Of a stretch of DNA of 64,000 nt, positions 16,588 to 33,442 are shown piece after piece; the stretch's first letter is position 1; every line of letters begins with the position of its first letter. The notes below the pieces were generated by a model that saw only the letters and a program-made list of their open reading frames with translations, did not search any database and was not told where the DNA came from. The position numbers and the translations under genes were made by a program. Source of the stretch: Pedobacter yonginensis (lineage in GTDB: Bacteria > Bacteroidota > Bacteroidia > Sphingobacteriales > Sphingobacteriaceae); NCBI RefSeq assembly GCF_003173595.1, contig NZ_QGNZ01000001.1, positions 310,001 through 374,000 of the forward strand. The letters are read 5' to 3'.

Positions 16588-18246
16588 TTGAAGCGCTTCC
16601 TTATCTTTCTACTGATTTTAATCAGTTTTTTTGCCTGCAAGAAGCAGGCCGACGGCGAAAAACAACTGCCTAACCCGGCCTATGATAATGCTTTTACATT
16701 CCGGGAAAGTGGCGATACTGATCGTGCATTCTACTATTTTAATCGCGCAAAAGACGTTTTTACAAAGAACGGTGATAGCTTGGGTGTGGGGAAATGCCTC
16801 TTAAATATGGCAATTATTTCCACGGACAAGGGAGATTACTTTGGAGGTCAGGAGCTTTCTCTAAACGCAATTAGATTTTTTAATCCCGCAAATCCGGCTC
16901 AGTTTTTCTTTATTCACTCTAATTATAACAACCTGGGCATAGCTAGCTACAAGCTAAAAGACTATAGTAATTCATTAAAATTTTATGCGCAGGCTTTAAG
17001 TTACTCCAAAGATTCTGCGGATACCCGGCTATATTTAAACAACCAGGCCAAAGTATATCAGGAATTAAAAGAATATACAAAAGCAATTGCGATTTATAAA
17101 AAGGTATTGTCCGGGGTGAGTAAGAATCCCAAAGAATATGCAAGGGCCTTATCCAATCTGGCCATGGCCGAATGGCAAAATAATAGCCTTTATAATCCCA
17201 TTCCACTTTTACATAAAGCGCGTTTGATGCGCGAGGAGAACAAGGATTTATGGGGAATGAATTCAAGTTACGCCACTTTGCTCGAATACTATGAAAGAAG
17301 TTCACCCGCAACAGCGCTCAGTTATGCAAAAAAGATGTATGAAGTCGCCCGGGAGCTTTCGAGTCCGGATGATGAACTTTTTGCCCTGCAAAACATTATT
17401 GAATTAAGCGACGCTGAACAGGGAAGGGCCTATTTCAGTATGTTCACTAAAAAACAGGACAGTTTGCTGAGTGTACGCAATGCAGCAAAAAATCAATTCG
17501 CCCTGATTCGCTATGAATCGGAAAAAAATAAGGCCGATAACCTCATTCTCCAAAAAGATAATCAGGCAAAAAGTTACCAGGTTGTTCTTTTAATATCAGG
17601 AATTATTCTAACTGCCGTCTCTGCAATCCTGATCTATAGAAAACGTAAGCAGAAATTAGCCCTGGATGCAAAAAATGCCATAAAGGAAAGTCAGCTCCGG
17701 ACCTCAAAAAAAGTACATGATGTGGTCGCAAACGGGCTGTATAGACTGATGACAGAATTTGAAAACCAGGCCGAAGTTAACCGCGTTGAAATGCTCGACC
17801 AGATGGAAGACCTCTATGAAAAATCACGTGATATTTCCTATGATAAGCCAATCGATGAGGAGAAACCTTTTCATGAACTTATCTCAGAACTCCTCGGCTC
17901 CTTCGCTGGTGAAAATACCCGCATCCTGATTGCCGGAAACGAAGATGTGCTCTGGCAAAAGGTCTGTCCCGCAACCCGCTATGAGCTCATCCAGATTTTG
18001 CAGGAGCTGATGATTAATATGAAAAAGCACAGCCGGGCAGACCAGGTCGTGCTTCGGTTCGAGCGGCTCGACAATCATATCCTTATTAACTATCAGGATA
18101 ACGGTATCGGGATAAAAAACAAGCTTACTTTCAATAATGGTTTGCGGAATACGGGAAACCGTATAGAAACTATAAACGGAGCAATTAACTTTGATACCAC
18201 AATGGAGAAAGGACTCAAAATTGAGTTGTCTTTTCCGGTTGCTTAA
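16588..18246 (+). CDS. TPR-containing lipoprotein histidine kinase
   Basis: A 552-aa sensor kinase. It starts at TTG 16588 with a lipoprotein-like signal (lipobox ending FFAC17). TPR-type repeats fill about 30-300, so the sensor part is periplasmic. A transmembrane helix (330-350) leads to an H-box HDVVANGL with H377 as the likely phosphorylated residue. The ATPase domain shows N-box ELMINMKKH, G1 DNGIGI and GLRNTGNRIE. It is followed after 11 bp by its response regulator. A perfect TACGG-GAAA-CCGTA palindrome lies inside its 3' coding end (18149-18164). Confidence 0.9.
   Translation: MKRFLIFLLILISFFACKKQADGEKQLPNPAYDNAFTFRESGDTDRAFYYFNRAKDVFTKNGDSLGVGKCLLNMAIISTDKGDYFGGQELSLNAIRFFNPANPAQFFFIHSNYNNLGIASYKLKDYSNSLKFYAQALSYSKDSADTRLYLNNQAKVYQELKEYTKAIAIYKKVLSGVSKNPKEYARALSNLAMAEWQNNSLYNPIPLLHKARLMREENKDLWGMNSSYATLLEYYERSSPATALSYAKKMYEVARELSSPDDELFALQNIIELSDAEQGRAYFSMFTKKQDSLLSVRNAAKNQFALIRYESEKNKADNLILQKDNQAKSYQVVLLISGIILTAVSAILIYRKRKQKLALDAKNAIKESQLRTSKKVHDVVANGLYRLMTEFENQAEVNRVEMLDQMEDLYEKSRDISYDKPIDEEKPFHELISELLGSFAGENTRILIAGNEDVLWQKVCPATRYELIQILQELMINMKKHSRADQVVLRFERLDNHILINYQDNGIGIKNKLTFNNGLRNTGNRIETINGAINFDTTMEKGLKIELSFPVA
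18149..18164. promoter_or_regulatory. Palindrome ATACGGGAAACCGTAT inside the kinase gene
   Basis: A 6-bp perfect inverted repeat around GAAA, 93 bp before the regulator ATG. It overlaps codons for the conserved G2-box RNTGNRI, so coding constraint may explain it, but it is the best palindromic copy in the window. Confidence 0.35.
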
Positions 18247-18257
18247 AAAGATAATTG

Positions 18258-18923: not shown

Positions 18924-19144
18924 ATGCTGCATTCTTTCAAACTACTCTTTTTTTAGCTGCTAAACTAAATGGCATGGTAAGTGTCTTGAATGAGCATTTT
19001 GGCGTTGCCGATCAAGCTTTTAGCTTCCCTATTGTCCTTAAGACGTTTCACGGGCATTTTATTGGGTATAGCTAGCAAACCCGGGGACCATTCTTTCGAA
19101 CTAAATAAGGGATCAGCTTTTTTTTTTGAAAAATATTGCCGCTC

Positions 19145-19158
19145 TACGGGAAACCGTA
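19145..19158. promoter_or_regulatory. TACGG-GAAA-CCGTA palindromic operator candidate
   Basis: A perfect 5-bp inverted repeat with a GAAA spacer, 63 bp before ATG 19222, in noncoding DNA. The 11-mer GGGAAACCGTA is identical to copies at 9236, 10769 and within 18149-18164. Confidence 0.5.
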
Positions 19159-19221
19159 AGGAAAGGCCGGTAAGCCTCTCTATTTTTGGCTAATAACCAA
19201 CAAGTAAATCCTTCCTTAACC

Positions 19222-20286
19222 ATGGAACTAAAATTAAAGCTCGAACAACTGCATCAGCGGGTGAATGGTCTAAAAGATCAGATCAATACCGAGGAGGCAA
19301 CAAAGAATGCATTCGTGATGCCGTTTATCCAAATATTAGGCTACGATATTTTTAATCCTACTGAAGTTATACCGGAACACATCTGCGATATCGGTACAAA
19401 AAAGGGCGAAAAGATAGATTATGTGATTAAGAAAAACGGGGATCCGATCCTGATTTTTGAATGTAAGCACTGGAAAGAAAATGCGGATGCCCATAATTCC
19501 CAGCTCCACAGATACTACCACGTGTCGAAAGCCAGGTTTGGGGTACTGACAAATGGCACGGTTTATAACTTCTATATGGACCTGGAAAAACCCAACATCA
19601 TGGACGAAAAGCCATTTTTCTCTATCGATATCGAGGATTTAAAAGATAGCGCCATAAAGATGCTGGAAAGTTTTACCAAAAATGAATTCAGCCTGGAGAG
19701 CATATTGGATTCTGCAGAGAGCCTGAAATACATCAAAGCCATCCGTAAAGAATTCGAAAATGAAATTCTTCAGCCATCAGATGAGCTGGTAAAGCTTTTG
19801 GTGGGCCGCTTTTTTGATAAACCATTGACCGCGAACCGTATGGTGACTTTTCGCGAGTACGCAAAAAAAGCGTTGACTTTATCTATTAATGAATCCATCA
19901 GTTCCCGCTTAAAATCCGCTTTAAGCATAAATGAAGGAATTGAAAAACAGCCGGAAGTGAAAATGGTTCTGGTAGACGATAATTCAGATGCTGCAAAAAT
20001 TATAACCACCGAGGAAGAATTGGAAGCGTTTCAGATCGTAAAAGCAATTTTAAGAGAGAAAATAGCCTCTCCACGCATATCACCGAGAGATACTCAGTCC
20101 TACTTTGGTGTGCTGCTGGATGATAACAACAGAAAGCCCATCTGCAGGTTTCACTTTAACACCGCAAACAAATACTTAGAGGTGTTTCCTAACGGAAAGG
20201 ACGCAGGAGAAAAAAAGATATTAGCAAGTCTTGATGAAATCTATCATTACCGCAGTGAACTGCATCAGACTTTAGCTAATTACTGA
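19222..20286 (+). CDS. PD-(D/E)XK protein resembling the type I restriction HsdR N-terminus
   Basis: From ATG 19222 (354 aa; a TTG at 19186 would add 12 residues). The N-terminal 150 residues follow the HSDR_N_2 pattern: NAFVMPFIQILGYDIFNP, then catalytic D66 in KIDYVIK, E80 and K82 in LIFECKHW, then a QLHRYYHV and GVLTNGTVYNFY segment. No helicase or methylase domain follows. The remaining 200 residues are helical and then a small alpha/beta C-terminal domain with FHFNTANKYLEVFPNG. It stands between the two-component genes and the large operon, preceded by an operator-like palindrome. It could be the nuclease of a defence response or a regulator. Confidence 0.8.
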   Translation: MELKLKLEQLHQRVNGLKDQINTEEATKNAFVMPFIQILGYDIFNPTEVIPEHICDIGTKKGEKIDYVIKKNGDPILIFECKHWKENADAHNSQLHRYYHVSKARFGVLTNGTVYNFYMDLEKPNIMDEKPFFSIDIEDLKDSAIKMLESFTKNEFSLESILDSAESLKYIKAIRKEFENEILQPSDELVKLLVGRFFDKPLTANRMVTFREYAKKALTLSINESISSRLKSALSINEGIEKQPEVKMVLVDDNSDAAKIITTEEELEAFQIVKAILREKIASPRISPRDTQSYFGVLLDDNNRKPICRFHFNTANKYLEVFPNGKDAGEKKILASLDEIYHYRSELHQTLANY

Positions 20287-20480: not shown

Positions 20481-21746
20481 ATGAGATTATCAAAGAACTA
20501 CTTAGTTAGTTTATTTTTCGTTTTAATAATCCCCGCGGTGATTCTTTATGCCTGTGATGCCGATGGTGATAGTACCTCCGGAAATAATGGCGAGCAAGGG
20601 TGCCCGGTTGAAAATAAAACGCCGGGAACCATTGCTCAAGGGACAAACCTAAACCTTTACATAGAGACTTCAGGCAGTATGGCAGGTTTTATGGATCATA
20701 GAGGTACAGCTTTTCAAAAAGAAGTATGGGCGGTGACAGAAGCGCTCGATAGTAGGTTTTCCAACCAAATGGGTATCTATCAGATTCAGTCAAAATCTGA
20801 AAAAATAAGCCCTTTGAAACTGGATGTTTTTAGAAATAATCTGAATACCGGTCGCTTCGTTTCTGCTAAATCCACAGATATCCCGGAAATGATAGACAGC
20901 ATTTTTAACAAAGCAGGAAAAAACACGGTTTCAGTACTTATTTCGGATTTAATATTCTCTCCGGATAATGGAAATGCCGCTCAAATCATACAAATTACCA
21001 CTGACATTAAGAAGCGATTTTATAACAAAGGCGTTTCAGGGATTTTGCTTCAGCTTAGTTCTGAATTTTATAAAAAAACAAAAGTGGAGGGTAGTCCGTA
21101 TTACATCTGGATTATCGGGGATAATAATGCGGCAAACGCGGTATCGAAATTGATTAAATCCGTTTTGGAAGGCTCCGTTAATGAAGCCGGATTTGGCATT
21201 ACTTTAGCCACGCCAAACTATTCCATTCTTCCTTCCCATAGTGCTGTAAACAATGCTTCTCCACTGATATGCGATCAGGATAAAAATTATTACAGCTACA
21301 TCGAGTATGATGAGGATGAGGGAGAGGAAATAACTTTTTGGGTTGGACTAAATCTCAAAGATTTGCCTGCATACATGCGTTCGGATTCTTATTTAAAAAA
21401 CAATACCGAGCTCACCACCGATGGCGGAACAGTTAAATTGCTTGCCGTAAGCGAACCTGACGCCATTCAAAATGCGGAAGATAAACAAATCATCGCCCGC
21501 AACCAGCTCACGCATTTTCTGCAGCTACGCATTACCCAACCTGCTTCGCGCACGTCGGTTTATATTAATATTCGTAAAAGCAGACCGGATTGGATTGATG
21601 AGCTCAATCTGTTAACCGAAGATAACCTGAGGCAGAAAACTTTTGGCCTCAAAAAAATGGCAGATGGGCTGGAAAGCGCCTACTTGACCAGTCAATCAAA
21701 GCCGCTGTTTCAAAAGCCGGCATCAGTTTACATCCTTAAAAAATAA
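20481..21746 (+). CDS. vWA-like lipoprotein
   Basis: First gene of the large operon. The open frame begins at 20349, but ATG 20481 gives a canonical lipoprotein signal (LVSLFFVLIIPAVILYAC, Cys25). A von Willebrand A-like domain follows from about residue 55: strand LNLYIETSGSM carries a MIDAS-type motif with Glu in place of the first Asp (ETSGS, 62-66), and SVLISDLIFS is the second conserved strand. About 140 further residues form a C-terminal beta-rich domain. It would sit in the periplasm or on a membrane surface. Its stop is 4 bp from the next start. The vWA call is by motif, not by alignment. Confidence 0.72.
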   Translation: MRLSKNYLVSLFFVLIIPAVILYACDADGDSTSGNNGEQGCPVENKTPGTIAQGTNLNLYIETSGSMAGFMDHRGTAFQKEVWAVTEALDSRFSNQMGIYQIQSKSEKISPLKLDVFRNNLNTGRFVSAKSTDIPEMIDSIFNKAGKNTVSVLISDLIFSPDNGNAAQIIQITTDIKKRFYNKGVSGILLQLSSEFYKKTKVEGSPYYIWIIGDNNAANAVSKLIKSVLEGSVNEAGFGITLATPNYSILPSHSAVNNASPLICDQDKNYYSYIEYDEDEGEEITFWVGLNLKDLPAYMRSDSYLKNNTELTTDGGTVKLLAVSEPDAIQNAEDKQIIARNQLTHFLQLRITQPASRTSVYINIRKSRPDWIDELNLLTEDNLRQKTFGLKKMADGLESAYLTSQSKPLFQKPASVYILKK

Positions 21747-21750
21747 AAAT

Positions 21751-22200
21751 ATGTGGAAATCTTTATATGATTATCTAACGCAGCAATTCGCCGGGCTGAA
21801 GTGGTCTGCTTTTCTTGCTCAAAATAACAATAACATCACCAGGGCCGCAAAGCTCAGGGATATTTTTCGAAATGATTTGTATCCGCTCTCGGGTATGCTG
21901 GTTATTGTGTTTTCCATTCTTGTAGGCCTCACTTATTATTTTCTGATCAATAAAAAAGGCGGTGCAGGTTATGCTTTCCGGGTTAAATACTGGGTTGCGG
22001 CCTTATTGCTGAATGCATTCACGGTGACCTTTATCATGCTTTACATCAGCATGAAAATGAGCAAGCCCTTCAATACGCTACATCCATTCAAATATTGTTT
22101 GTCTTTGGCAACCACAAATTTTATCTATGCAGCGCTGCTTTTCTTCATCGTTTCAATAGTAATTAAAAGATTTTCTGTCGCCAATACCACACCTTTTTAA
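21751..22200 (+). CDS. Small three-helix membrane protein of the motor/tubulin operon
   Basis: A 149-aa integral membrane protein with hydrophobic helices at about 46-66, 81-101 and 118-138 and a 45-residue cytoplasmic-looking N-terminus (WKSLYDYLTQQFAGLKWSAF). It starts 4 bp after the lipoprotein stop and ends 12 bp before the tubulin-like start, so it is part of the operon. No known family; a membrane receptor for the tubulin-like protein is a plausible role (inference). Confidence 0.75.
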   Translation: MWKSLYDYLTQQFAGLKWSAFLAQNNNNITRAAKLRDIFRNDLYPLSGMLVIVFSILVGLTYYFLINKKGGAGYAFRVKYWVAALLLNAFTVTFIMLYISMKMSKPFNTLHPFKYCLSLATTNFIYAALLFFIVSIVIKRFSVANTTPF

Positions 22201-22212
22201 AAATCTATTTCT

Positions 22213-23667
22213 ATGCCAAGAATATTTATTTTCGGAATTGGCGGGACAGGAACCCGTGTGCTTAAATCCTTGACCATGCTATTGGCTTCTGGTGTTGATA
22301 TGCATGACTATGATGTGGTCCCGATTATTATCGATCCGCATAAAGATTTGCCTGAACTTAAGGAATGCAAAAACATGCTGCGCCTGTACTCGAAAATCCG
22401 CCGTACAATTTATAGCAATCATATTCCTGAATCCCCGAATGCGTTCTTTCGGACAAATATGCTATCCCTTTCCGAAGCCCTGCAAGGTGGAATGAAAGAA
22501 GGATTTGACTTCGATGAACGCATAGATGAAACATTCGGGGAATTCCTGTCCTACAATTCGCTAGCTAAAGAAGACAGGAACAAAGATCTTCTTGATTTGC
22601 TTTATAACGAGCAATCGCTGAACACGAAGCTTTCCGTAGGCTTCAAAGGTAACCCCAATATTGGTTCGGTGGTGCTGAACAGCTTTGAAGATACCGAGTG
22701 GTACAAAAGTTTTGAAAAAATATTCGATAAAGGTGACCGCATTTTCATAATCAGTTCCATCTTCGGTGGGACGGGTGCATCAGGTCTGCCGCTGCTCATA
22801 AAAAACCTTCGCAGAAGCAAAAATAAAGAGGTAAAAAGTGCGGCCATTGGTGCACTACCTATAATGCCTTACTTTAAACTATCTGAACCGGACGCCGACT
22901 CGGTGCACAAAGACATTGACTCCAATAATTTTATAACAAAAACAAAGGCTGCCTTAACCTATTACCAAAACCATCTAAAGGGTGTGAATGCACTGTACTA
23001 TCTTGCTGACCCCCATGAACAATCCGTGCCTTATGTAAATGATGAGGCCAGGCAAAATAACATGGCACACATCGTTGAGCTGATAGGTGCCTCTGCTATT
23101 CTTGATTTCCAACGCAGAGAGTTTCAGGACCAGGAAGAAAACCAGTATCAATATGCCCTGAAAATGGGTACCAAAGATGTTGATTTCAGAAACATAGGGG
23201 AGGAACTCAATGACCTGATAAGAACCGAACTGACCAATTATCATACTTTCAATAAAATCCACCCCAGCATCCGCGCGATGGAGAAAGCAGCAGTGAAAGA
23301 TAATGAAGGTTTTGATCGTGACTTTTTTAGGGGTAGCTTCATTCGAGACCTTGAAGAATTCAACGTGAAATATTTTCAGGAATGGTTGAAAGGCCTGGGC
23401 GAGAATGATCGTAAATTCTATCCTTTTAACCTTTCTATAGATGATGACCGGTTGCACAACCTGGTCATTGGCAGTGAAGTACCTGAACGGGGGGGGATGC
23501 TGGGCATAAGCAAAGTGACCTATGATACCTCCAACTTTATCAACCAGATGGAATCAATCAGAAAACAATATAACGCTATTCCTGCCGCTTTGAAAGCCAC
23601 AAAATATATGGTGTTGGCTGAAAATGCCATTCGTTCTGTCAATATCAATAAAATTAAAGTCAACTAA
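22213..23667 (+). CDS. Tubulin/FtsZ-like GTPase
   Basis: A 484-aa protein with the Rossmann-type nucleotide fold of the tubulin superfamily: an N-terminal glycine loop IFGIGGTGTRV (6-16) after a hydrophobic strand, and the tubulin signature IFGGTGASGLP (183-193) at the usual spacing. It is larger than FtsZ and lacks its C-terminal tail, so it is one of the divergent bacterial tubulin-like families reported near membrane-remodelling genes. It lies between a membrane protein gene and an actin-fold gene. Polymerisation is an inference from the fold. Confidence 0.82.
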   Translation: MPRIFIFGIGGTGTRVLKSLTMLLASGVDMHDYDVVPIIIDPHKDLPELKECKNMLRLYSKIRRTIYSNHIPESPNAFFRTNMLSLSEALQGGMKEGFDFDERIDETFGEFLSYNSLAKEDRNKDLLDLLYNEQSLNTKLSVGFKGNPNIGSVVLNSFEDTEWYKSFEKIFDKGDRIFIISSIFGGTGASGLPLLIKNLRRSKNKEVKSAAIGALPIMPYFKLSEPDADSVHKDIDSNNFITKTKAALTYYQNHLKGVNALYYLADPHEQSVPYVNDEARQNNMAHIVELIGASAILDFQRREFQDQEENQYQYALKMGTKDVDFRNIGEELNDLIRTELTNYHTFNKIHPSIRAMEKAAVKDNEGFDRDFFRGSFIRDLEEFNVKYFQEWLKGLGENDRKFYPFNLSIDDDRLHNLVIGSEVPERGGMLGISKVTYDTSNFINQMESIRKQYNAIPAALKATKYMVLAENAIRSVNINKIKVN

Positions 23668-23668
23668 C

Positions 23669-24913
23669 ATGAGTGTATTAAATATTTTTGACGCTTCGGG
23701 TGACCCTGAAACAGGATGGAGACATACCGAAAAATTAAATGAATCTTCCATTAGTCAGCTACGGGATAAATCCGCTAAGACCACAAATGCCCTTAATGCA
23801 GTGCCTTCCCCTTTTTCAAGGATTCATACCTTTGACACGGCATTCAAATTAGTCACCAGCGACCTGGTTGGCCAGCAGGACCGGGCGTCAGGAATTTACC
23901 GGGAATTGGTGTCGGATTGCCTGGATGCGATCGAACTGGTCTTCAATGCCAATTATCACATTTCCCAGGGCGATCAAATTGATTTTGTAAACTGGTCAAC
24001 TGCAGATCTGACCACACTACTCAATGGAACCTACGGACAGCAGGTATTAGCCAAAACGCTAACTACATTTGCCGAAGCAGATTTTATTCAGGAGCCGCTT
24101 ACCATTTCCATCGTGAAATACAGCGGACTGGTGATCGGTGGCTCTTCACCATTTACGCTGATGTTTACTTCCTCCAACCTGGATAAATCCCGTTCGCAGC
24201 GTCCTGATGAGCGCTTTAGAAGCGCAAGATATAACGCTCATTTTGATTTGGTGAATCCCTCCAGTGGTAGTTTGTATTTCAGCAAAATAATCCCGTTTTC
24301 AAAAAGGTCCGCAGAATTCAAAAATTACCTGCTCTCCATCTTCGAGCGAAACCCGGTAATGAAACGCAATAGTTCGAAAGTATTCTGGGACTATCTGGTT
24401 GCCGAAGGCGTGGGAACATTAACGCTTAAAGCAAGTCAAACCAAGCCAAATGTAGCCCTCAACGGAGGAGTCTTCCATACTGCGGGTATTGCACTGAACA
24501 GCAACTCCAACGTGCTCTCAACGGAGATCTTCAATGACCATATCGTTAGGGTGGAATACCGTATTAATGAAAATTGTTTTCATACCCCAACCTATGTGCA
24601 TGAACCGGAACGACGAAATTTTGATTTTCTTCTACCCATAAAACCCGAATTCTTTAATAAGGTCAAGCCCAGCGATATTCCCAAACACTTTCGCTATGAG
24701 ATTCTGGGTGAGCGTGTCAGGGTTATCTACGATAATGGTGAGCTGGATGTACCGAGAGTGAAAGACTTTATTCTTGGCGAAAAGACCAAAACAGAAGGCA
24801 ATATTGTAAACGTTACAACCGATATCGGAGGGAGTTTCCTCTTAGGCATTTTCCCTTTTCTAAAAGTTATCAATGCAGACGGCTCCTCGAATAATGATTA
24901 TAATGACTTTTAA
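23669..24913 (+). CDS. N-terminal part of a large actin-fold protein, ended by in-frame TAA
   Basis: A 414-aa product from ATG 23669, 1 bp after the tubulin-like stop. No domain recognised. The end of the visible product (GGSFLLGIFPFLKVIN) is immediately followed by TAA 24911-24913, and the same frame stays open without interruption into the actin-fold part (to 27238). The 76 codons after the stop are protein-like and contain no ATG. Together they would make one 1188-residue protein. I therefore read this as the N-terminal half of a nonsense-interrupted gene; separate translation of two proteins cannot be excluded. Confidence 0.75.
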   Translation: MSVLNIFDASGDPETGWRHTEKLNESSISQLRDKSAKTTNALNAVPSPFSRIHTFDTAFKLVTSDLVGQQDRASGIYRELVSDCLDAIELVFNANYHISQGDQIDFVNWSTADLTTLLNGTYGQQVLAKTLTTFAEADFIQEPLTISIVKYSGLVIGGSSPFTLMFTSSNLDKSRSQRPDERFRSARYNAHFDLVNPSSGSLYFSKIIPFSKRSAEFKNYLLSIFERNPVMKRNSSKVFWDYLVAEGVGTLTLKASQTKPNVALNGGVFHTAGIALNSNSNVLSTEIFNDHIVRVEYRINENCFHTPTYVHEPERRNFDFLLPIKPEFFNKVKPSDIPKHFRYEILGERVRVIYDNGELDVPRVKDFILGEKTKTEGNIVNVTTDIGGSFLLGIFPFLKVINADGSSNNDYNDF

Positions 24914-25141
24914 AAAATTAGCCTCGCCATTGACGGTGGTGGCAACCATGCGCAACTGAAAACTGATGCTTTTGGCCTGGGATTTTATAAAAAAGAAGGT
25001 CTGAAAGTAGAACAAATAAATGCAGAGGGGGAAATTTACAATGCGAAACGCGAGGTTCGCCGGGCCTTTGAAAGTCCCGACCCACTCGCCTCGATTTATT
25101 ACCAGGTCAATAAAACCTGTTTTGATTTTATCCAGGTTAAT

Positions 25142-27238
25142 TTGCAGCACCTCAGCGGACCGGGCGCATTGAAGGGAATAATCATTCCCAAATGGAAAGA
25201 AAAGCGAATTGGAGATAGGCAGTTTGATTTTTCTGTGGATTTCGGGACAACAAATACTTTTGTAGCCTATACCGATGACCCCAATCATTATAGTATGCCA
25301 AAACCATTTGATATCGATACCAATGAACTCCAAATGGTCATGTTCCAGCAAATTCCACCTGTTGAAGGCGGACAGGCGGTTACCTCCTCTTTCTGGAGAG
25401 AGTCCAATACCCGTGAACTTGTAAAAATGACCGTCTCCAACGAATTTATTCCCCCTATCTTTCTTCCCGGCGAACCGGGTAGTATATTTAATATGCCCTT
25501 CAGAACGGCCATATTCCAAAAGAAAAACATTTCAAGTTTTAACCTTTTCGGTGATCTGAATGTACATTTCGGTTATCAGAAAACAGAAATTGATGAGACA
25601 ACAAATGACTATCAGGAAATCGTAGCCAATCTTAAATGGAATATATCGAGCTTGAAAGATCTGGGTTCAAAGTACAGGGTAGAGAAATTTATTGAAGAGC
25701 TTTGCATGCTTTTTAAATATAAGGTGCTGCTCAATAATGGAAATCCAAAACTCACAAAGCTAAATTGGTTTATACCCCAAAGTCTTTCGGAAGCCTCCAT
25801 TGGACTTTATGAAGAAATCTGGAAAGAAAAAGTACTGAAGTTCTTAAAGGCAGAATCTGTCCCCAAACGTGTTTACGAGTCTGAAGCCCCTTATTATTTT
25901 CTGGAGCGAACAGGCAGGATTGAAAACAACGAAGCCGTATTGTCGATAGACATCGGCGGAGGTTCGACCGATGCGATGCTTTTTGTCAATAAGATTCCCA
26001 GACTGGGTACCTCCTTTAACTTTGCCGGTAATATCCTCTGGTCAAACGGTTACAACCAGCTTGAAAATGATGCCAAGGATAATGGGTTTTACCAGAAAAT
26101 AAAGGATCTGCTAAAAGAAGTTGTGGAACGAGATCAGTTTTTGGGCAAATCGATGAAAAACTATCAGAATAAATCCACAGACGAAATCATGAATTTCTGG
26201 TTGGCCAATAATGATAAAACTAAAATCACAGATTATCTGAAGGATCCCGATTTTAAGATCGTTTATCTGGTGCATTTCTGCTCCATTATTTACCACATGG
26301 CGCAGCTCCTGAAAACAAATAATTACCAGGAGCCAACCTGCCTGATTTTTAGCGGCAACGGAAGTAAGTACATTGACTTTATTGCCAACGAGCAAACCCT
26401 CGGGAAAATAACAGCTTTCATTTTCAGCAAAGTATTTACAAAGGAAATCAAACAGCCCCAAGTTATTCTGCCCTTGGAAAACCGCAAAGAGGCTACCTCA
26501 TATGGTGGCATTTTTAAGAAACAGGAACTGGATTTCAAATCCAAGTCTTACCTGGGTACTACCGCCGACTTTGAAAAAGCAAACCGAATCATCACTTACA
26601 ATGATGTAGAAAATAACATCATAGAGATTAAGCCGAGCATCCGCCAGAATATTATAAATATGCTCGACATCCTCCAGTCACTGAATGATGTCGTAAATTT
26701 TAAATCCCAGCTGAATATCGATTTCAACATCGCCTCTGTGAGAAAATTTATAGAAAACCAGCTCGACAGTAACTTTGATAAAGGCTATGGTATCCGTAAA
26801 GAGAAAATTTCTTATGATGAAAACGTTTCAGACAGTTTGTTCTTCTATCCGCTGATTGGTGTGATATTCGACCTGGGCAGATTGACCAATGAAAAACTGT
26901 CTGAATTTACTCCTACAACAACAAAGTATGCATTGGAGCCCTCGGGCAACGATGTCTTTGATATCCAGGCCCTGAGTAATGAACCTGTATTCAACAGTAT
27001 TTTTGAAATTTCCGTTCCGGTTAACAACCCAAATGAGGGCACGTTTTCACTGATCGCCGATGAGGCGCTTTATAAACGTGCCTATACTTCCCGGGAATTC
27101 GTACTCGAACCGGTTTGTGAGCTGGTTAATTTTCCTCAGGGAATTAAAATTAACATCAAACAGCACAACACAGGTCGATTGCGTAAGGATGGTAACAAAT
27201 GGATAGTCACTGAAAAATTAAAAATAGAATTTATTTAA
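25142..27238 (+). CDS. Actin/Hsp70-fold ATPase segment (frame continues from 23669)
   Basis: The frame is open from 24914; the first possible start after the TAA is TTG 25142 and the first ATG is at 25292, inside the ATPase. ASKHA motifs are clear, numbered from TTG: phosphate-1 VDFGTTNTFVAY (32-43), phosphate-2 LSIDIGGGSTDAML (267-280), and an adenosine motif IFSGNGSKYIDFI (about 410). An ATG start at 25292 would delete phosphate-1, so function needs the upstream sequence or the TTG start. It ends 11 bp before the MotA-like gene. The architecture with a long N-terminal extension plus ATPase domain is unlike DnaK, MreB or ParM. Confidence 0.82.
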   Translation: MQHLSGPGALKGIIIPKWKEKRIGDRQFDFSVDFGTTNTFVAYTDDPNHYSMPKPFDIDTNELQMVMFQQIPPVEGGQAVTSSFWRESNTRELVKMTVSNEFIPPIFLPGEPGSIFNMPFRTAIFQKKNISSFNLFGDLNVHFGYQKTEIDETTNDYQEIVANLKWNISSLKDLGSKYRVEKFIEELCMLFKYKVLLNNGNPKLTKLNWFIPQSLSEASIGLYEEIWKEKVLKFLKAESVPKRVYESEAPYYFLERTGRIENNEAVLSIDIGGGSTDAMLFVNKIPRLGTSFNFAGNILWSNGYNQLENDAKDNGFYQKIKDLLKEVVERDQFLGKSMKNYQNKSTDEIMNFWLANNDKTKITDYLKDPDFKIVYLVHFCSIIYHMAQLLKTNNYQEPTCLIFSGNGSKYIDFIANEQTLGKITAFIFSKVFTKEIKQPQVILPLENRKEATSYGGIFKKQELDFKSKSYLGTTADFEKANRIITYNDVENNIIEIKPSIRQNIINMLDILQSLNDVVNFKSQLNIDFNIASVRKFIENQLDSNFDKGYGIRKEKISYDENVSDSLFFYPLIGVIFDLGRLTNEKLSEFTPTTTKYALEPSGNDVFDIQALSNEPVFNSIFEISVPVNNPNEGTFSLIADEALYKRAYTSREFVLEPVCELVNFPQGIKINIKQHNTGRLRKDGNKWIVTEKLKIEFI

Positions 27239-27249
27239 CGCCCGCCATT

Positions 27250-28734
27250 ATGATGTTTTTAGAGGGAATTTCCCTGATAATAATTGCTTCGCTGCAGTTT
27301 TATTTTTTCAGCCGCTCCATAACTGAGGTAGCCAAGCTCAGTAACTTTTTTCCTTCGGGGGAACTTGGTCTTGAGTGTATAGGCGCGGCCGAGCTCAACG
27401 GTCAGAAAATAGATCAGCTGGTTTTTGAGCACAAGCATTCTGAATTTAAATCCGTTGTTCTGGCAACAAATGCCTATCTGTACAATAATGTCGGTTCGGC
27501 CGATTTTAATATCATTAAAAGTATTGCTGACCGTACCGTTAGCTCGCAGGAGGAAAAAATTTCATCTACACTTTCTCTTCCCCTATATTTCGGACTGATG
27601 GGCACTTTTATCGGGGTAATATTAGGATTGGGCTCCATAGCCCTAAACGGATTTAACCTGCAGGATACAGACCACCTGATCAACCAGCTGGTCACCGGGG
27701 TGGTAATGGCCATGGTAGTCAGTTTTCTGGGACTTGCCCTGACAACGGTTCTCAATGCTTTTCTGTTCAGAAACGCAGTTGCGCAGCGGGATGTTAACCG
27801 AAATCACTATCTGAATTTTCTGCAGGCGAAGCTGCTGCCAAACCTGGACAACAATCTGTATGCGGCACTCGATCAGTTCAAACTAAACATTGCGGACTTT
27901 AATGTCAAGTTTAGTAAAAACCTTGATTTCTTCGACAGCTCTTTTAATGAAAATATTAAAAATTTGAAAGGGACCGTGGAGGGAATGTCCGGTCAGATTG
28001 TAGCTGTAAATGAAAATATGAGCGTTCAGCTTGAATTTCTTCAGGAACTGCGGAAAATAGGCTATAACCGCATGGCTGAAGCAAATATCCGGGTGTTTGA
28101 TAAGATTAAAGAATCCGGTCCGCTACTGGTGAACTTCATCAGGGAACAACAGAAATTAACAGAAAACCTCGAGCAGGCAAATAACTTCGGATCACGTGTG
28201 GCCGGGTTAATGGACAGGGTGGCAAGTTTTGAAGATGGCATCAACAACCTTGGAAGAGAACTGCAGCAATCCGATTTACTGGGAGGCAACCTAATAAATA
28301 TCGTTAAAAAGCACCTGCATGCCATTGAACAAAAAGAACATCTGGTTAATGACTATGCAGCCCGTTCAAACAGCGAGGTGGAATCCTATCTCTCTTCTGG
28401 ACTGGAGCGAATAAAAACACTTAAAAACAAAATTGAAATCGATTTCGAAAAAGCATTTGATTTCCATGCTGAAGGCAACTTGATGCAGAACTTAAACTAC
28501 CTCAAAGAAATTGACGGGAATATCCTTAAGCTCAATCTGAATCTCGAACAAAAAAATGATGCACAGATCATTTCAAAGTTAGATCAGCTGGTCGAAATCA
28601 TGCAAGAAAAAGAGGTGTCGCCGTCGCCTCGGTCGATAATTCCGAGCACAGATAAGGAAGACGATCGTATCGAGGAAACGGCCAAAAAGGAAAGCAAGTG
28701 GTGGCGTGTCTGGGGCAAAAATAAAGCTGCTTAA
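27250..28734 (+). CDS. MotA/TolQ/ZorA-like motor protein with long coiled-coil tail
   Basis: A 494-aa protein. Hydrophobic segments lie at 5-22, 108-132 and 147-172; the pair SLPLYFGLMGTFIGVILGLG and GVVMAMVVSFLGLALTTVLN is the MotA/TolQ/ExbB stator signature. About 260 residues of predicted coiled coil follow, as in ZorA, whose tail projects deep into the cytoplasm. The C-terminus is basic (KKESKWWRVWGKNK). The partner MotB-like gene follows 2 bp later. In Zorya the ZorA5B2 complex is a proton-driven motor; the same role is inferred here. Confidence 0.85.
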   Translation: MMFLEGISLIIIASLQFYFFSRSITEVAKLSNFFPSGELGLECIGAAELNGQKIDQLVFEHKHSEFKSVVLATNAYLYNNVGSADFNIIKSIADRTVSSQEEKISSTLSLPLYFGLMGTFIGVILGLGSIALNGFNLQDTDHLINQLVTGVVMAMVVSFLGLALTTVLNAFLFRNAVAQRDVNRNHYLNFLQAKLLPNLDNNLYAALDQFKLNIADFNVKFSKNLDFFDSSFNENIKNLKGTVEGMSGQIVAVNENMSVQLEFLQELRKIGYNRMAEANIRVFDKIKESGPLLVNFIREQQKLTENLEQANNFGSRVAGLMDRVASFEDGINNLGRELQQSDLLGGNLINIVKKHLHAIEQKEHLVNDYAARSNSEVESYLSSGLERIKTLKNKIEIDFEKAFDFHAEGNLMQNLNYLKEIDGNILKLNLNLEQKNDAQIISKLDQLVEIMQEKEVSPSPRSIIPSTDKEDDRIEETAKKESKWWRVWGKNKAA

Positions 28735-28736
28735 AA

Positions 28737-29363
28737 ATGTCGGAGAAATCAAAAAGAGACTTCTTTTGGCCCAGTTACGTGGATTTAATGACCAGTTTAT
28801 TTGTGGTCATGCTGGTTATGTTTATCATTTCCTATATCAGCTTCAGAAAACAAAATCAGGAGCTGGCCGCAAGTAAGATTGAAATGGATAGAATTCGTCA
28901 GATTGATAAAGCGTTGAGGCAGCTGGATAAAAAGTATTTTTATCTCGATCCCGATAATAACCGCTACAAGTTATTGGTCGAAGTGATTTTTAAGCCCCAT
29001 AGCGCCGATATCAATACCATTGGAAAAAAAAGCCTCCAGGAGCTGGAAAATGCGGGCGCCGTTCTTTATAAAAAAATGAAGCAACTATCCACCGATAAAG
29101 ACATTAACTATCTGCTCATTGTAGAGGGGAATACCGAACGCTATAATAACAACTGGATGGTTAATCCGGATCTAGGCTATCTGACCAGTTATAAAAGGAG
29201 TCTGGCCCTGAAGAAATTCTGGCAGTCGAAGGGATTTGATTTTAGTGTTTTTCAGAACTGTGAGATTCTGATTGTCGGTAGCGGATATTTCGGCCGCTCA
29301 CACCAGAAGAACAGCCGGACCTTTACCATCCAAATTACCCCCAAATTTAAAATCGGACAATGA
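28737..29363 (+). CDS. MotB/ZorB-like stator protein with OmpA-type domain
   Basis: A 208-aa protein with one N-terminal transmembrane helix beginning PSYVDLMTSLFVVMLVMFI; D16 is at the position of the ion-binding Asp of MotB/ZorB. A short coiled linker leads to an OmpA/MotB-like peptidoglycan-binding domain (about 80-205; YLLIVEGNTE and YKRSLALKKFW are the recognisable parts). It starts 2 bp after the MotA-like gene. Together they form a complete stator-like pair. Confidence 0.87.
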   Translation: MSEKSKRDFFWPSYVDLMTSLFVVMLVMFIISYISFRKQNQELAASKIEMDRIRQIDKALRQLDKKYFYLDPDNNRYKLLVEVIFKPHSADINTIGKKSLQELENAGAVLYKKMKQLSTDKDINYLLIVEGNTERYNNNWMVNPDLGYLTSYKRSLALKKFWQSKGFDFSVFQNCEILIVGSGYFGRSHQKNSRTFTIQITPKFKIGQ

Positions 29364-29394
29364 TTCCAAAGATATATTTTCCATATTAGCCCCA

Positions 29395-30276
29395 ATGGGT
29401 AGAGAAATGAAAAGGCGTCAAACACAATACCTGAAAGTCACTGGTAAGCTGCTTTCTATAAAAGCGCGCATAGGTATAGTCTTCCTGATTTTTTCCTGCG
29501 CATCGTTCTGCGGTTTGGCCCAGACCCAGGTTTCTATCTTGTCCTGGAATTTAAAAGACCTGGGTATTTCTAAAACGCAGACTGAATTTGCCTTTATGGC
29601 AAATCTGATGAAGGGATACGATTTGGTTGCCATACAAGAGGTAGTTGCAGGACCCAACGGCCCAAAGGCGGTTGCAGAACTTGCCCTTGAGCTGAACAGG
29701 ACCGGGTTTTCATGGGACTACACCATAAGTGCGGTTACCTCAGGAGGCTCGGTGCATAAATCGGAGCGTTATGCCGTGCTCTGGAAGACAGCCCGGTTAA
29801 AAAAGCTTGGACAGGGATGGCTGGAGAAAACCTACGGAAAGCTCATCGAAAGGGAACCATTTTATGTTCGATTCCGAATGGGAAATAAAGAATTTCAGCT
29901 GGCAAACTACCATGCCATTACCAAAAGTAAGCAGCCGGAAACCGAAATCAAATATTTTAAATTCCTTCCGGCCTTATATCCTGAAAGATCAATCATTTTT
30001 TGCGGAGATTACAATCTGCCGCAATCGCACAGTGTTTTTGAACCCCTGAAGAAAACGGGTTTCCGCCCCGCCCTCACCAAACAAAAAACATCCCTCCGCC
30101 AGCGATGCATTAATGGCGACTGTCTGGCTTCGGAATTTGATAATTTCTTTTTTGATGCATCTGCAATGAAGCTTAAAAGTGCCGGTGTCATTCATTTTTA
30201 CAGGAAATTTTCGACTTTGAAGGCAGCAAGAAAATTATCCGACCATATTCCCATATTTATGACTATTGAACTATAA
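29395..30276 (+). CDS. Exported DNase I-fold (EEP family) enzyme
   Basis: Endonuclease/exonuclease/phosphatase family. ATG 29395 (or 29407) gives a basic start and a hydrophobic export segment (IGIVFLIFSCASFCGLAQ), so the catalytic domain should be outside the cytoplasm. EEP motifs are all present: ILSWNLKDLG (Asn), LVAIQEVV (Glu), ANYHA (His), FCGDYNLP (Asp/Asn) and a final SDHIPIFM (Asp/His). The family includes DNase I-like nucleases and phosphodiesterases. It lies between the motor genes and the FtsK-like gene, with 2 bp to the latter. A periplasmic nuclease role is inference. Confidence 0.85.
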   Translation: MGREMKRRQTQYLKVTGKLLSIKARIGIVFLIFSCASFCGLAQTQVSILSWNLKDLGISKTQTEFAFMANLMKGYDLVAIQEVVAGPNGPKAVAELALELNRTGFSWDYTISAVTSGGSVHKSERYAVLWKTARLKKLGQGWLEKTYGKLIEREPFYVRFRMGNKEFQLANYHAITKSKQPETEIKYFKFLPALYPERSIIFCGDYNLPQSHSVFEPLKKTGFRPALTKQKTSLRQRCINGDCLASEFDNFFFDASAMKLKSAGVIHFYRKFSTLKAARKLSDHIPIFMTIEL

Positions 30277-30278
30277 AG

Positions 30279-31784
30279 ATGGATGATCTAAGTACCATTG
30301 ACAATGCTTACCCAGATCCGAAAAAAAGGTTTCCCGCATGGATTAAACTCCCTTTTTACCATTTGCCTGATGCGCAAAATCCCTCAAGCGACTTAAAAGA
30401 GTTCCTGATGGGCTTCAGCCAGGCTACAGCTGATTACCAGTTCCCATTGGTGCTAGGACGGGACACGACTTACCAGGCTTATGATATTGCCAACCAGCCC
30501 AATGTACTCATTGCCGGGGCCACGGGAAGCGGTAAGACACAATTTATTTATAACCAGCTTGCATTCTGGCTTTCCACCAGGCGACCCGAACAGCTTCAGA
30601 TTTTGATCTGTGGGAGTAAACCGATAGATTACCATTTTCTAGACCCCTTAAATTGCCATTTTCTGGCGGCTCACTGCAATAAAATCCAGTTTAACGGAAA
30701 TAGTGATTTTCTGCAATTAATGAATTCATTGACTCAAGAGCTTAACCACCGGCTGGAATGCTTTACAATGGCCGGCGTAAAATCCATCACCCAATACAAC
30801 AAGCTGTACTCAAAGCAGGTAAGCCAGGCAGAGAAACCCGGTACTTACCTTCCCGATTTAGTTCTGATAATTGATGATTTATACAACTTCGTCTCCGTTC
30901 CAGGACATGCGGATTTACTTTCTGAGGTGATGCATAAAACTTCCAATACCGGGATTTATATACTCGCAGCAACCAGCCAGGTAAACTCATCTGCAGTAAG
31001 TAGAAAACTGCGCGCCAACTTTGTTTTCCGCATAGCAATGAAGGTGATGTCGCAGTCCGATTCGAGAAAAATTTTAGACGAAACCGGCGCAGAGCATCTT
31101 CAGCCCGGTCAGCTGCTTTACAACCTGCATGGCCAGCATAAAAAATTGTCCTTCCCTGAAATACCATTTGATGTATTAAAAAAACTTGTGAGTGAAATTG
31201 CCGCTCAGGCAGCTTTTCAGCATCCCTATGCGCTTTATAAACAACCGGAAATGCAAAGCGAGTATCCGCTGGAAAAAGATCGGTTTTTTGAGGAGGCAGC
31301 ACGGATAGTGGTGATGCACCAACAGGCATCAACTTCACTTCTTCAGCGTAAATTAAAGCTAGGTTACAACCGGGTGGGTAGAATAATGGATCAGCTCGAA
31401 CATGCAGGGATTGTCGGCCCGTTTGATGGGCTTAAGCCCAGGATTGTATGCTGTCCGGATGAGTATTCGCTTGAACAATTTCTATCAGGCATTGGTAATA
31501 CTAAATATAATGCAGGAGAAAAAGACTCCATGCATCCTATAAACGGCATTTTGCAACCCGCCCCACCTGCTGAATCTTTTTCCAATGCCCGAAGAGATGA
31601 GCGGATTATAGATAAAAAAGAAAGGCATTCGGGCACAGCATCAACTCAGGATGAGCTTCGCGTTGTAAAGGGTTCCGCCTTCAGGAACACAAAAAACTTA
31701 AGCATTAAGTCGAAACGATCATTGTGGGACATCATCAGAGATTTTTTTTATGGAGAGAGAATATCGGACAATTTTAATAGCTAA
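30279..31784 (+). CDS. FtsK-like DNA translocase with host-type gamma domain, no N-terminal membrane region
   Basis: A 501-aa soluble FtsK/SpoIIIE-family ATPase: Walker A GATGSGKT (80-87), Walker B LVLIIDDLYN (about 180-189; host FtsK has DEFAD), then SDSRKILDETGAEHLQPGQLLY in the position of the host SRTILDSGGADQL segment. The gamma winged helix (about 328-392) reads QRKLKLGYNRVGRIMDQLE against QRKLKLGYNRAGRIIDQLE in the host protein, while the motor domain is far more divergent. A basic, probably disordered tail of about 100 residues ends the protein. It is the penultimate gene of the operon, with 2-bp gaps on both sides. Confidence 0.9.
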   Translation: MDDLSTIDNAYPDPKKRFPAWIKLPFYHLPDAQNPSSDLKEFLMGFSQATADYQFPLVLGRDTTYQAYDIANQPNVLIAGATGSGKTQFIYNQLAFWLSTRRPEQLQILICGSKPIDYHFLDPLNCHFLAAHCNKIQFNGNSDFLQLMNSLTQELNHRLECFTMAGVKSITQYNKLYSKQVSQAEKPGTYLPDLVLIIDDLYNFVSVPGHADLLSEVMHKTSNTGIYILAATSQVNSSAVSRKLRANFVFRIAMKVMSQSDSRKILDETGAEHLQPGQLLYNLHGQHKKLSFPEIPFDVLKKLVSEIAAQAAFQHPYALYKQPEMQSEYPLEKDRFFEEAARIVVMHQQASTSLLQRKLKLGYNRVGRIMDQLEHAGIVGPFDGLKPRIVCCPDEYSLEQFLSGIGNTKYNAGEKDSMHPINGILQPAPPAESFSNARRDERIIDKKERHSGTASTQDELRVVKGSAFRNTKNLSIKSKRSLWDIIRDFFYGERISDNFNS

Positions 31785-31786
31785 CA

Positions 31787-32008
31787 ATGAAATTTTTAAT
31801 ATCAGTTTTAATTTTTATCCAGATAGCCACAATCGGCCAGGAAAAAAAGCAAGAGGTCTATATCTGTGTCAGCCCGACAGCGATCGCTTACCACAAATCA
31901 AAAACAGCTTGTAAAGGCATCCGGAGTTGTACCCACCGGATTCAAAAGGTAACCCTCGAAGATGCAATTAAAAAATACAAGTATCGAGCGTGTAAGTTAT
32001 GTTTTTAG
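31787..32008 (+). CDS. Small exported Cys-rich protein
   Basis: A 73-aa protein with signal peptide (MKFLISVLIFIQIATIGQ) and a compact domain with Cys/His spacing VYICVSP...YHKSKTACKGIRSCTHRI...ACKLCF. The pattern resembles a small family common in Bacteroidota in which a Cys-x2-Cys end and internal His/Cys could bind a metal, or form disulphides after export. It starts 2 bp after the FtsK-like stop and closes the operon. Confidence 0.75.
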   Translation: MKFLISVLIFIQIATIGQEKKQEVYICVSPTAIAYHKSKTACKGIRSCTHRIQKVTLEDAIKKYKYRACKLCF

Positions 32009-32713: not shown

Positions 32714-33442
32714 TTAGCAAAACGGATGATCTTCACCCGCATTTTCACAGAACTTTTCATAAAGAAAGTCTAGATTTGATAAGAGATTTGTTGCTAAATC
32801 CTCTTCTATCTTTTGAATTTCACTTAGGTTCCCAATAATTGTTATTCCAAGATATTCATCTATAACATCCGAGGGTAAAAGTTGCGGCCCTTTAGCCTTA
32901 AGTACAGGGTTTTCATCGAGCATCTCTTTGATGCCTTTGTGGATCTCAAGTAGTTCAACATCGACATTGTTTAAAGAACCTTCATGAGCAATCTTATTTC
33001 GGATAACTTTGACCGTACTGAATAATATTTTCAGGTTTTCAACTATTGTTTTAATTCCCTCTACACCCTGTTTGTCGGCGCATTTTAACAACATGTTCTC
33101 GAAGCCGTTTGCGCCCCTTGGAAGCTTCCAAATGTAGACCGCATCGATTAGTTTCAAGACCAGGTCTTTATATGTGGTAATCTTGAGAAAGAAATTCTCA
33201 ATATGATACTTGAGCTGCATCTCCCTGCTTATGTTTGGGTGAGGAGGTACGCCACTGTCGTGATGAAGGGCAGCAATTAACTGCCTGGCCATAACCAAAT
33301 CTTTTAACACTTTCTTAATTTTTGCAAAATCGCCCATCACCTGCTGGCAGTAAAGTCTCTGCAGGGAATTTTGATCGTGCTGCTTGTAGAATACTATATC
33401 CTGAATGAGTTTTCGGTTAAATTTATGGTCAGTGAGGAGCAT
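32714..33442 (-). CDS. HEPN-domain protein
   Basis: A 242-aa, almost entirely helical protein with the HEPN ribonuclease motif Rx4H: R148-N-K-I-A-H153 in VIRNKIAHEG. The layout resembles the Cthe_2314-like HEPN group. HEPN proteins often act as RNases in toxin-antitoxin or abortive-infection systems. No nucleotidyltransferase (MNT) or other antitoxin partner is adjacent, so it may be an orphan or act with a distant gene. It is transcribed against the main operon. Confidence 0.75.
   Translation of the reverse strand: MLLTDHKFNRKLIQDIVFYKQHDQNSLQRLYCQQVMGDFAKIKKVLKDLVMARQLIAALHHDSGVPPHPNISREMQLKYHIENFFLKITTYKDLVLKLIDAVYIWKLPRGANGFENMLLKCADKQGVEGIKTIVENLKILFSTVKVIRNKIAHEGSLNNVDVELLEIHKGIKEMLDENPVLKAKGPQLLPSDVIDEYLGITIIGNLSEIQKIEEDLATNLLSNLDFLYEKFCENAGEDHPFC

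What the first reader, a model, noticed from the sequence alone, without database searches (positions are those of the whole stretch)
20481..32008. Operon combining tubulin-like and actin-fold proteins, a ZorAB-like motor, an exported nuclease and an FtsK translocase
Nine or ten genes with gaps mostly under 15 bp encode a vWA-like lipoprotein, a membrane protein, a tubulin signature protein (GGTGASG), an ASKHA ATPase (DFGTTNT, DIGGGSTD), a MotA/ZorA-like protein with coiled-coil tail, a MotB/ZorB-like protein with the TM Asp, an exported EEP enzyme, an FtsK-type motor and a small Cys protein. Zorya has ZorAB plus ZorC/D or other effectors; none of those is here. The combination of two cytoskeletal folds, an ion-driven stator and a DNA translocase suggests an envelope machine that senses perturbation and handles DNA. 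Its location beside Hachiman genes on an integrative island supports a defence or inter-element conflict role. I cannot say it is absent from the literature.
Basis: partly seen in the sequence, partly recalled or inferred. Interest (0 to 1): 0.95.

Follow-up and report, generated by a model that had tools for sequence, protein, structure and literature searches.

The report
Tubulin-actin envelope motor with exported nucleases
This gene cluster, whose core recurs in the same order in many Bacteroidota bacteria, encodes a tubulin-like protein, an actin/Hsp70-type ATPase and a relative of the membrane motor of the Zorya anti-phage system, followed by a nuclease that is predicted to be exported, and it likely works as a cell-envelope machine against incoming DNA.

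The parts
16588..18246 (+). TPR sensor histidine kinase (upstream; Pedobacter hotspot module, not core)
   Evidence: Pfam TPR_12 2e-16, HATPase_c 1.5e-5 just under cut-off; same strand upstream of the machine in L121, L116, L024, L080, L083
18255..18923 (+). Response regulator paired with the kinase
   Evidence: Response_reg E 2.4e-6, just under cut-off; same loci
19186..20286 (+). HsdR-N-type (PD-(D/E)XK-like) nuclease; directly upstream of the vWA gene here and in L121, L120, L080, L023, but also common without the machine
   Evidence: HSDR_N E 6e-15
20481..21746 (+). g1: vWA-like lipoprotein with ExSxS in place of the MIDAS DxSxS
   Evidence: VWA_2 E 4e-4, under cut-off; ExSxS-type motif in most family members and crude lipobox scan
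21751..22200 (+). g2: small membrane protein
   Evidence: no Pfam family; homologue in 80 of 81 loci
22213..23667 (+). g3: tubulin/FtsZ-fold protein (Tubulin_2), GIGGTGTR and GGTGASG loops
23669..27238 (+). g4+g5: one ASKHA (Hsp70/actin-fold) ATPase gene with ~500-aa N-terminal region and C-terminal beta-rich region, split by an in-frame TAA at 24911-24913
   Evidence: fold of the intact L023 homologue:
27250..28734 (+). g6: ZorA-like stator subunit with long, probably coiled-coil tail
   Evidence: PADLOC ZorA 1.5e-5; profile A4 vs ZorA 8vvi/8vvn/8qyk
28737..29363 (+). g7: ZorB-like subunit, TM aspartate, peptidoglycan-binding-type domain
   Evidence: PADLOC ZorB1 1.5e-11; profile A5 vs ZorB 8vvn 2.7e-13; Asp in 70 of 71 homologous ORFs
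29395..30276 (+). g8: predicted-exported EEP/MnuA-type nuclease with QE, GDxN and SDH motifs
   Evidence: Exo_endo_phos 6.7e-7; MnuA 2.4e-12, under its cut-off; motifs and hydrophobic N-terminus
30279..31784 (+). g9: FtsK-type motor with FtsK_gamma (accessory); 34% identical to the long FtsK at 3-2489
31787..32008 (+). g10: 73-aa Cys-rich protein with hydrophobic N-terminus; follows the nuclease gene in L116 too

Best explanation
The cluster encodes a tubulin-fold protein, an Hsp70/actin-fold ATPase, a vWA-like lipoprotein and a ZorAB-type stator that likely form one ion-driven machine across the cell envelope, whose output here is predicted to be an exported nuclease that would cut incoming DNA. 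Shown: the gene content, the predicted folds, the conserved order, the affinity of the motor to ZorA/ZorB, and the swapping of three nuclease folds behind ZorB. Inferred: ZorB binds peptidoglycan and senses envelope damage, as proposed for Zorya; ion flow turns or shifts the ZorA tail; the tail acts on the cytoplasmic tubulin-ASKHA assembly, whose NTP cycle sets a threshold; through the small membrane protein and the vWA lipoprotein this assembly places or activates exported hydrolases, in several loci probably a protease that matures a nuclease. The core may serve envelope upkeep where no nuclease is attached (Hymenobacter, Pontibacter). In this strain the ASKHA gene is interrupted, so the local copy may be inactive or run as two pieces.
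For: Folds. Motor. Core in 81 loci: vWA 81, MEM 80, TUB 81, ASKHA 81, ZorA 70, ZorB 66. Nucleases behind the core: Endonuclease_NS in 7, EEP in 5, SNase in 3 loci, all with ZorA; outside Hymenobacter/Pontibacter 15 of 38 with ZorA and 0 of 11 without (Fisher p 0.011; Pfam checks). Eight of those 15 also have a protease; in L092 protease and nuclease are one protein. Nuclease type changes 12 times on a 58-row tubulin tree. [quoted passage not shown] Zorya model from PMC11890865, introduction and discussion.
Against: 81 of 81 genomes of the genus taken to be Hymenobacter carry the tubulin gene, which fits a housekeeping role. The ZorA-nuclease link vanishes as a test if all 81 loci are used (15 of 70 vs 0 of 11, p 0.20), and is weaker without a twin locus and a partial ORF (14 of 37 vs 0 of 11, p 0.021). 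The phylogeny-corrected test has 5 independent pairs (p 0.25-1), and the 11 changes of nuclease presence equal the lowest of 200 shuffles (mean 14.4), so presence also follows the tree. 23 of 38 ZorA loci there have no nuclease found. Defence excess in flanks is weak. No PADLOC model hits g1-g5. No experiment.
Confidence: 0.43

Rival explanations
1. A housekeeping envelope-remodelling machine: the tubulin and ASKHA proteins with the ZorAB-like stator maintain or remodel membrane and wall, and the exported enzymes are wall- or surface-processing accessories.
For: 81 of 81 genomes of the genus of G460, taken to be Hymenobacter, carry the tubulin gene; recurrent flanking genes in named Hymenobacter loci; Makarova and Koonin proposed membrane remodelling for FtsZ-like-1/vWA operons; wall-related modules in a ZorAB-less locus (YkuD, and SH3_3 under cut-off, in L132).
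Against: Patchy elsewhere (12 of 392 sampled genomes of the phylum, three of them of the G460 genus); flanks of five Pedobacter-group loci and the window share DNA only in the upstream two-component/HSDR_N stretch; nucleases are odd accessories for wall upkeep; repeated swapping.
Confidence: 0.35
2. A new Zorya subtype in the strict sense: ZorAB recruits the cytoplasmic HsdR-N nuclease or FtsK protein to infecting phage DNA; tubulin and ASKHA are regulators.
For: ZorB profile match over nearly the whole protein, E 2.7e-13; HSDR_N gene directly upstream in five loci, the window included; Hachiman nearby.
Against: No ZorC/D/E hit in g1-g10; HSDR_N is common in Pedobacter-group genomes without the machine; the vWA-TUB-ASKHA core exists without ZorA and ZorB in 11 of 81 loci.
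Confidence: 0.1
3. In this strain the cluster is a decaying remnant: the stop in the ASKHA gene ended its function.
For: In-frame TAA where relatives are open; no usual start codon for 76 codons after it.
Against: The other genes are open; the two halves align end to end with L116 (66% and 72%); the three ASKHA motifs are in the second half; a base-call error is not excluded.
Confidence: 0.4
4. A feeding or DNA-uptake apparatus: exported nucleases and proteases digest environmental polymers.
For: Both nucleases and proteases are predicted to be exported.
Against: No uptake channel or transporter family recurs in the clusters of the fetched neighbourhoods.
Confidence: 0.08

Closest known systems
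FtsZ-like-1 (Tubulin_2) / vWA membrane-remodelling system, Makarova and Koonin 2010 (PMC2875224; parts 1 and 2 of 5 read, plus passages)
   Same: FtsZ/tubulin-like protein in an operon with a vWA protein; OmpA-type peptidoglycan-binding partner in several genomes; membrane proteins; Bacteroides caccae is among the species of their alignment.
   Different: No GTPase or protein kinase here; instead a ~1,190-aa ASKHA ATPase, a ZorAB stator and exported nucleases or proteases. The words MotA, TolQ and Hsp70 do not occur in that text (term search).
Zorya (ZorAB), Mariano et al. 2025 (PMC11890865; introduction, discussion and passages read)
   Same: ZorA/ZorB-type stator with long ZorA tail, TM aspartate and peptidoglycan-binding domain.
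   Different: No ZorC/D/E hit in g1-g10; adds tubulin, ASKHA and vWA; the nuclease is predicted to be exported rather than cytoplasmic.
GAP1-N2 GTPase-centric conflict systems, Kaur et al. 2020 (PMC7159879; section 29 and passages read)
   Same: Tubulin and vWA proteins in membrane-linked conflict systems with variable effectors.
   Different: Centred on GTPases and GAP1, mainly in other phyla; section 29 puts tubulin and HSP70 into separate themes; MotA, MotB, TolQ and ASKHA do not occur in the text (term searches).
Ter (TerC/TerD) systems (recalled); here the related cluster L122-L125, L133
   Same: A more distant Tubulin_2 gene beside a long protein with weak hits to the ASKHA models, preceded by a lipoprotein and a small membrane protein.
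   Different: TerD x2 and TerC (Pfam in L122) and an OmpA-like protein (by eye) in place of ZorAB; tubulin identity 25% (L125).

Membership tests
Zorya | ZorA homologue | tested here: met
   PADLOC ZorA 1.5e-5; profile A4 vs solved ZorA 5.5e-5 to 6e-4 in the stator region (8VVN and 8VVI are type I and II ZorAB). NCBIfam ZorA/ZorB hits are far under their cut-offs
Zorya | ZorB homologue with TM Asp and peptidoglycan-binding domain | tested here: met
   PADLOC 1.5e-11; 8vvn_B 2.7e-13 over profile positions 4-211 of 214; Asp in 70 of 71
Zorya | ZorC+ZorD, ZorE, or ZorF+ZorG effector | tested here: not met
   no such PADLOC hit at E<=0.1 in g1-g10; genes beyond were not scanned with PADLOC in this window
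Zorya | anti-phage activity | not testable with these tools
   needs phage challenge
FtsZ-like-1/vWA system | Tubulin_2 / FtsZ-like protein | tested here: met
FtsZ-like-1/vWA system | vWA protein in the operon | tested here: inconclusive
   VWA_2 E 4e-4 under cut-off; ExSxS rather than DxSxS
FtsZ-like-1/vWA system | GTPase or protein kinase partner (frequent, not universal) | tested here: not met
   no such Pfam family above cut-off in g1-g10
FtsZ-like-1/vWA system | coiled-coil and helical C-terminal region of the FtsZ-like protein | not tested
   484-aa protein; coiled coil was not predicted
GAP1-N2 system | GTPase plus GAP1 | tested here: not met
   no GTPase family above cut-off in g1-g10; GAP1 itself was not searched for
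ASKHA superfamily | Hsp70/actin fold with phosphate-1, phosphate-2 and adenosine motifs | tested here: met
Ter system | TerD and TerC | tested here: not met
   absent in g1-g10; present in the L122 cluster

The most novel reading that the evidence does not exclude
An envelope immune machine in which an ion-driven ZorAB rotor drives a mixed tubulin-actin cytoplasmic assembly that fires exported nucleases, cutting DNA in the periplasm or at the cell surface before it enters; the first defence built on two cytoskeletal folds and an extracytoplasmic nuclease output.
Probability: 0.3. Interest if true: 0.93.

Novelty: new variant of a known kind. Interest (0 to 1): 0.8.

Why it matters
It joins two separate threads: the FtsZ-like-1/vWA operons, described in 2010 with a predicted function only, and the Zorya motor. 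It gives both a testable partner set: a tubulin, an Hsp70-type ATPase, a stator and a swappable exported nuclease. If the inferred function holds, it would be a defence acting outside the cytoplasm and a new use of rotary stators. If the housekeeping rival holds, it is an uncharacterised cytoskeletal machine whose tubulin gene is in all 81 genomes examined of the genus taken to be Hymenobacter. Either way a deletion in a laboratory Hymenobacter or Pedobacter decides.

Tried and rejected
1) Accessory cluster c10 (model 'NUC1'): I first took it for one nuclease family. Pfam on 15 of its 17 members showed a mix of trypsin-like proteases and Endonuclease_NS, joined by the fusion in L092. L051's was not scanned and was taken as trypsin-like from its near-identical twin L048; L065's, on the opposite strand, was not scanned and not counted. 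Counts were redone; the tallies that use NUC1 are superseded. For the other enzymes Pfam was run on single members only (EEP: window and L083; aspartyl protease: L063; transglutaminase-like: L083; SNase: L080, L135, L220); the rest rest on my own profiles. L063's EEP ORF is short (190 aa) and lacks two motifs; L056's SNase ORF is a 92-aa part.

2) HSDR_N nuclease as part of the machine: it lies directly upstream in five loci, the window included, but 28 of 59 genomes (own included) carry homologues at E<=1e-20, many short or partial. Of 17 other genomes with an 80-85% copy, 11 have no tubulin match, 4 the Ter-type one and 2 the machine. I treat it as a hotspot neighbour.

3) Defence-island enrichment: PADLOC at E<=1e-15 gave at most 9 hit genes among 143 flank genes (2 of 145 dropped for a size cap) versus 1 of 118 control genes. 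Fisher p is 0.025 for 9 hits and 0.13 for 6, a low guess, since models that hit the same gene cannot be told apart. Four of 20 control regions did not exist. Inconclusive.

4) Surface-export signal of the vWA lipoprotein: lipobox-like motif in 69 of 94, two or more acidic residues at +2..+7 in only 11 of 69 (a crude scan); dropped.

5) Island ends: no second copy of the tRNA-Leu 3' end in window or genome; the tRNA follows the same gene in 6 of 6 relatives, but nothing else of the window aligned within 20 kb there.

6) The N-terminal ~500 aa of the ASKHA protein: no solved-structure match fell there, but this was barely tested.

7) Plasmid records: 2 distant hits; phage records: none; IMG/VR: 4 contigs.

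Ter-type loci L122-L125 and L133 were left out. Titles of L048, L056 and L058 name other phyla (MAGs). The Hymenobacter/Pontibacter list was made by hand and wrongly kept L047 and left out L041 and L046; one search corrects it (15 of 38 instead of 15 of 37, conclusion unchanged). With all 81 loci the ZorA-nuclease test is not significant (p 0.20). The genus of G460 is called Hymenobacter by inference: its contig has the length of the one that holds the Hymenobacter protein P0095, and the layout matches named Hymenobacter loci.

9) In one search the row L082a took a wrong ORF of similar length and says nothing about that gene.

None of the listings showed the tubulin-ASKHA-ZorAB combination; only CC-licensed PMC papers are covered, no preprints.
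Full report
What is there. The window lies in a genome of the Pedobacter group (same genus as G054, whose contig matches the named Pedobacter namyangjuensis record of L080). From 20481 to 32008 nine genes on the + strand follow each other with gaps of 1-31 bp. The ORFs 23669-24913 and 24914-27238 lie in one frame, parted by one TAA; most relatives have a single ORF. The halves align end to end with the L116 protein at 66% and 72%. Three other loci also show the gene as two ORFs: L059, L082 and, near its C-terminus, L074. So this strain's ASKHA gene is interrupted; whether by mutation, error or tolerated splitting I cannot tell.

Motor. A profile of 27 ZorB-like proteins hits solved ZorB 8vvn at E 2.7e-13 over nearly its whole length and 8qyd at 1.7e-7, ahead of a MotB (3.5e-4). 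For ZorA the stator region hits solved ZorA at 5.5e-5 to 6e-4; most other hits of that profile lie in the coiled-coil part, one of them slightly better (4.3e-5). A single-sequence search with the window's ZorA found no solved ZorA at E<=1. The TM aspartate is kept in 70 of 71 ZorB-like ORFs; Bacteroides luti L025 has glycine.

Conservation. In these the vWA gene occurs in 81, the membrane gene in 80, ASKHA in 81, ZorA in 70, ZorB in 66; 11 have neither ZorA nor ZorB and 4 only ZorA. In 71 of 81 a further gene (GAP) for a protein with a C-terminal ~100-aa domain is found, usually between ASKHA and ZorA; in the window, L023, L025 and L116 it is missing and the ASKHA C-terminus carries the matching domain, which argues that the two act together. 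Distribution: 12 of 392 sampled genomes of the phylum, 21 of 99 relatives, the Ter-type relatives included, but 81 of 81 genomes of the genus of G460, taken to be Hymenobacter (only the tubulin gene was tested, in pieces in a few).

Exchangeable exported enzymes. Downstream of the core, in most cases right behind ZorB, sit different enzymes; N-termini are hydrophobic in 17 of 17 members of the mixed c10 cluster and 6 of 6 EEP proteins (crude scan). By Pfam on single members or all members as told under Tried and rejected they are Endonuclease_NS, EEP, SNase, trypsin-like, aspartyl protease and transglutaminase-like. Outside Hymenobacter/Pontibacter a nuclease occurs in 15 of 38 loci with ZorA and 0 of 11 without (Fisher p 0.011; 15 of 37 by a faulty list); any such enzyme in 26 of 38 and 2 of 11. 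With one twin locus and one partial ORF dropped it is 14 of 37 and 0 of 11 (p 0.021), with all 81 loci 15 of 70 and 0 of 11 (p 0.20). Eight of the 15 nuclease loci also have a protease, and L092 fuses a trypsin domain to Endonuclease_NS. On a quick tubulin tree of 58 rows, nuclease presence changes at least 11 times and type 12 times, ZorA 5 times; 200 shuffles gave 11 or more changes of presence (mean 14.4), so presence partly follows the tree; the phylogeny-corrected test has only 5 pairs and cannot decide. Some loci without ZorAB carry other modules there: WG repeats (L128, L131), YkuD and a weak SH3_3 (L132), zinc ribbons (L079, L087).

Hotspot. In the window the operon follows a two-component pair and an HSDR_N nuclease gene. 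HSDR_N genes recur in many Pedobacter-group genomes without the machine; a homologue of the regulator lies within 1.5 kb in 16 of 19 such loci fetched from other genomes. Of 16 sites whose downstream side was fetched (one of them only 1.9 kb), 13 have an SNase-family gene within 8 kb on the same strand (Pfam run on one, L220), behind variable cargo: vWA-like exported proteins (by eye), coiled-coil membrane proteins (by eye), PLD, DnaJ or, in L213, a GTPase weakly like DO-GTPase1 (E 2.3e-4, under cut-off). The HSDR_N protein is 82-85% identical between the window and L080, L120 and L121, while the machines beside it are only 21-37% identical and two of them lack ZorAB. So this site seems to take up alternative envelope modules, of which the machine is one. 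This is an inference from position.

Function. What is shown ends with composition, order, folds and swapping. From Zorya (introduction and discussion of PMC11890865 read) I infer envelope sensing by ZorB and signalling through the ZorA tail. From the predicted-exported enzymes I infer an output outside the cytoplasm. The presence of the tubulin gene throughout the genus taken to be Hymenobacter is the strongest point against a pure defence role; a machine with a core envelope task that was repeatedly armed with nucleases would fit both.

Prior work. Makarova and Koonin 2010 (parts 1 and 2 of 5 read, plus a term search) described FtsZ-like-1 proteins with vWA, GTPase, kinase and OmpA-type partners and proposed membrane remodelling. 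Kaur et al. 2020 (passages and section 29 read) described GTPase-centred conflict systems with tubulin and vWA. The FtsZ/tubulin survey of 2023 (PMC9871819; passages) treats Tubulin_2 proteins as divergent and sparse. None of the texts read, and none of the ten search listings, shows the tubulin-ASKHA-ZorAB-nuclease combination.

Noticed in passing
L205-L220 (Pedobacter-group genomes), window 16588-20286: A hotspot: two-component pair + HSDR_N gene, variable envelope/vWA-like cargo, and an SNase-family gene within 8 kb in 13 of 16 sites.
   Followed up: partly
L122-L125, L133: Related cluster: lipoprotein, small membrane protein, tubulin, ~1,300-aa protein weakly like the ASKHA one, then TerD x2, an OmpA-like protein and TerC instead of ZorAB (Pfam run on L122).
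   Followed up: partly
L092:17815-19215: Natural fusion of a trypsin-like protease and Endonuclease_NS directly after ZorB.
   Followed up: yes
L079:17359-18012, L085:17234-17863, L077:18840-20255: FtsK_gamma domains recur near the core; in L079 on a small protein with a C-terminal hydrophobic segment.
   Followed up: partly
window 11608-14250: Hachiman-type pair: HamA (PF08878, E 3e-53) and a DEAD-type helicase.
   Followed up: partly
window 4547-6132: Large serine recombinase ORF overlapping tRNA-Leu(gag); no second copy of the tRNA end in the genome.
   Followed up: partly
window 32714-33442: Weak HEPN (Cthe2314-type) protein, E 2.8e-5, under cut-off.
   Followed up: no
window 40697-41731: IS110-family transposase.
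   Followed up: no
L025:16423-17073: Bacteroides luti ZorB-like protein has Gly in place of the TM Asp.
   Followed up: no
L056:17546-18955, L102:19468-20909: Two ZorB-like genes in tandem.
   Followed up: no
genomes G487, G489, G546 (genus of G460): The tubulin hit falls into two adjacent pieces, perhaps split genes or frame errors.
   Followed up: no
L221-L224: Four IMG/VR contigs encode tubulin relatives (23-36% identity); whether viral or host DNA is unknown.
   Followed up: no
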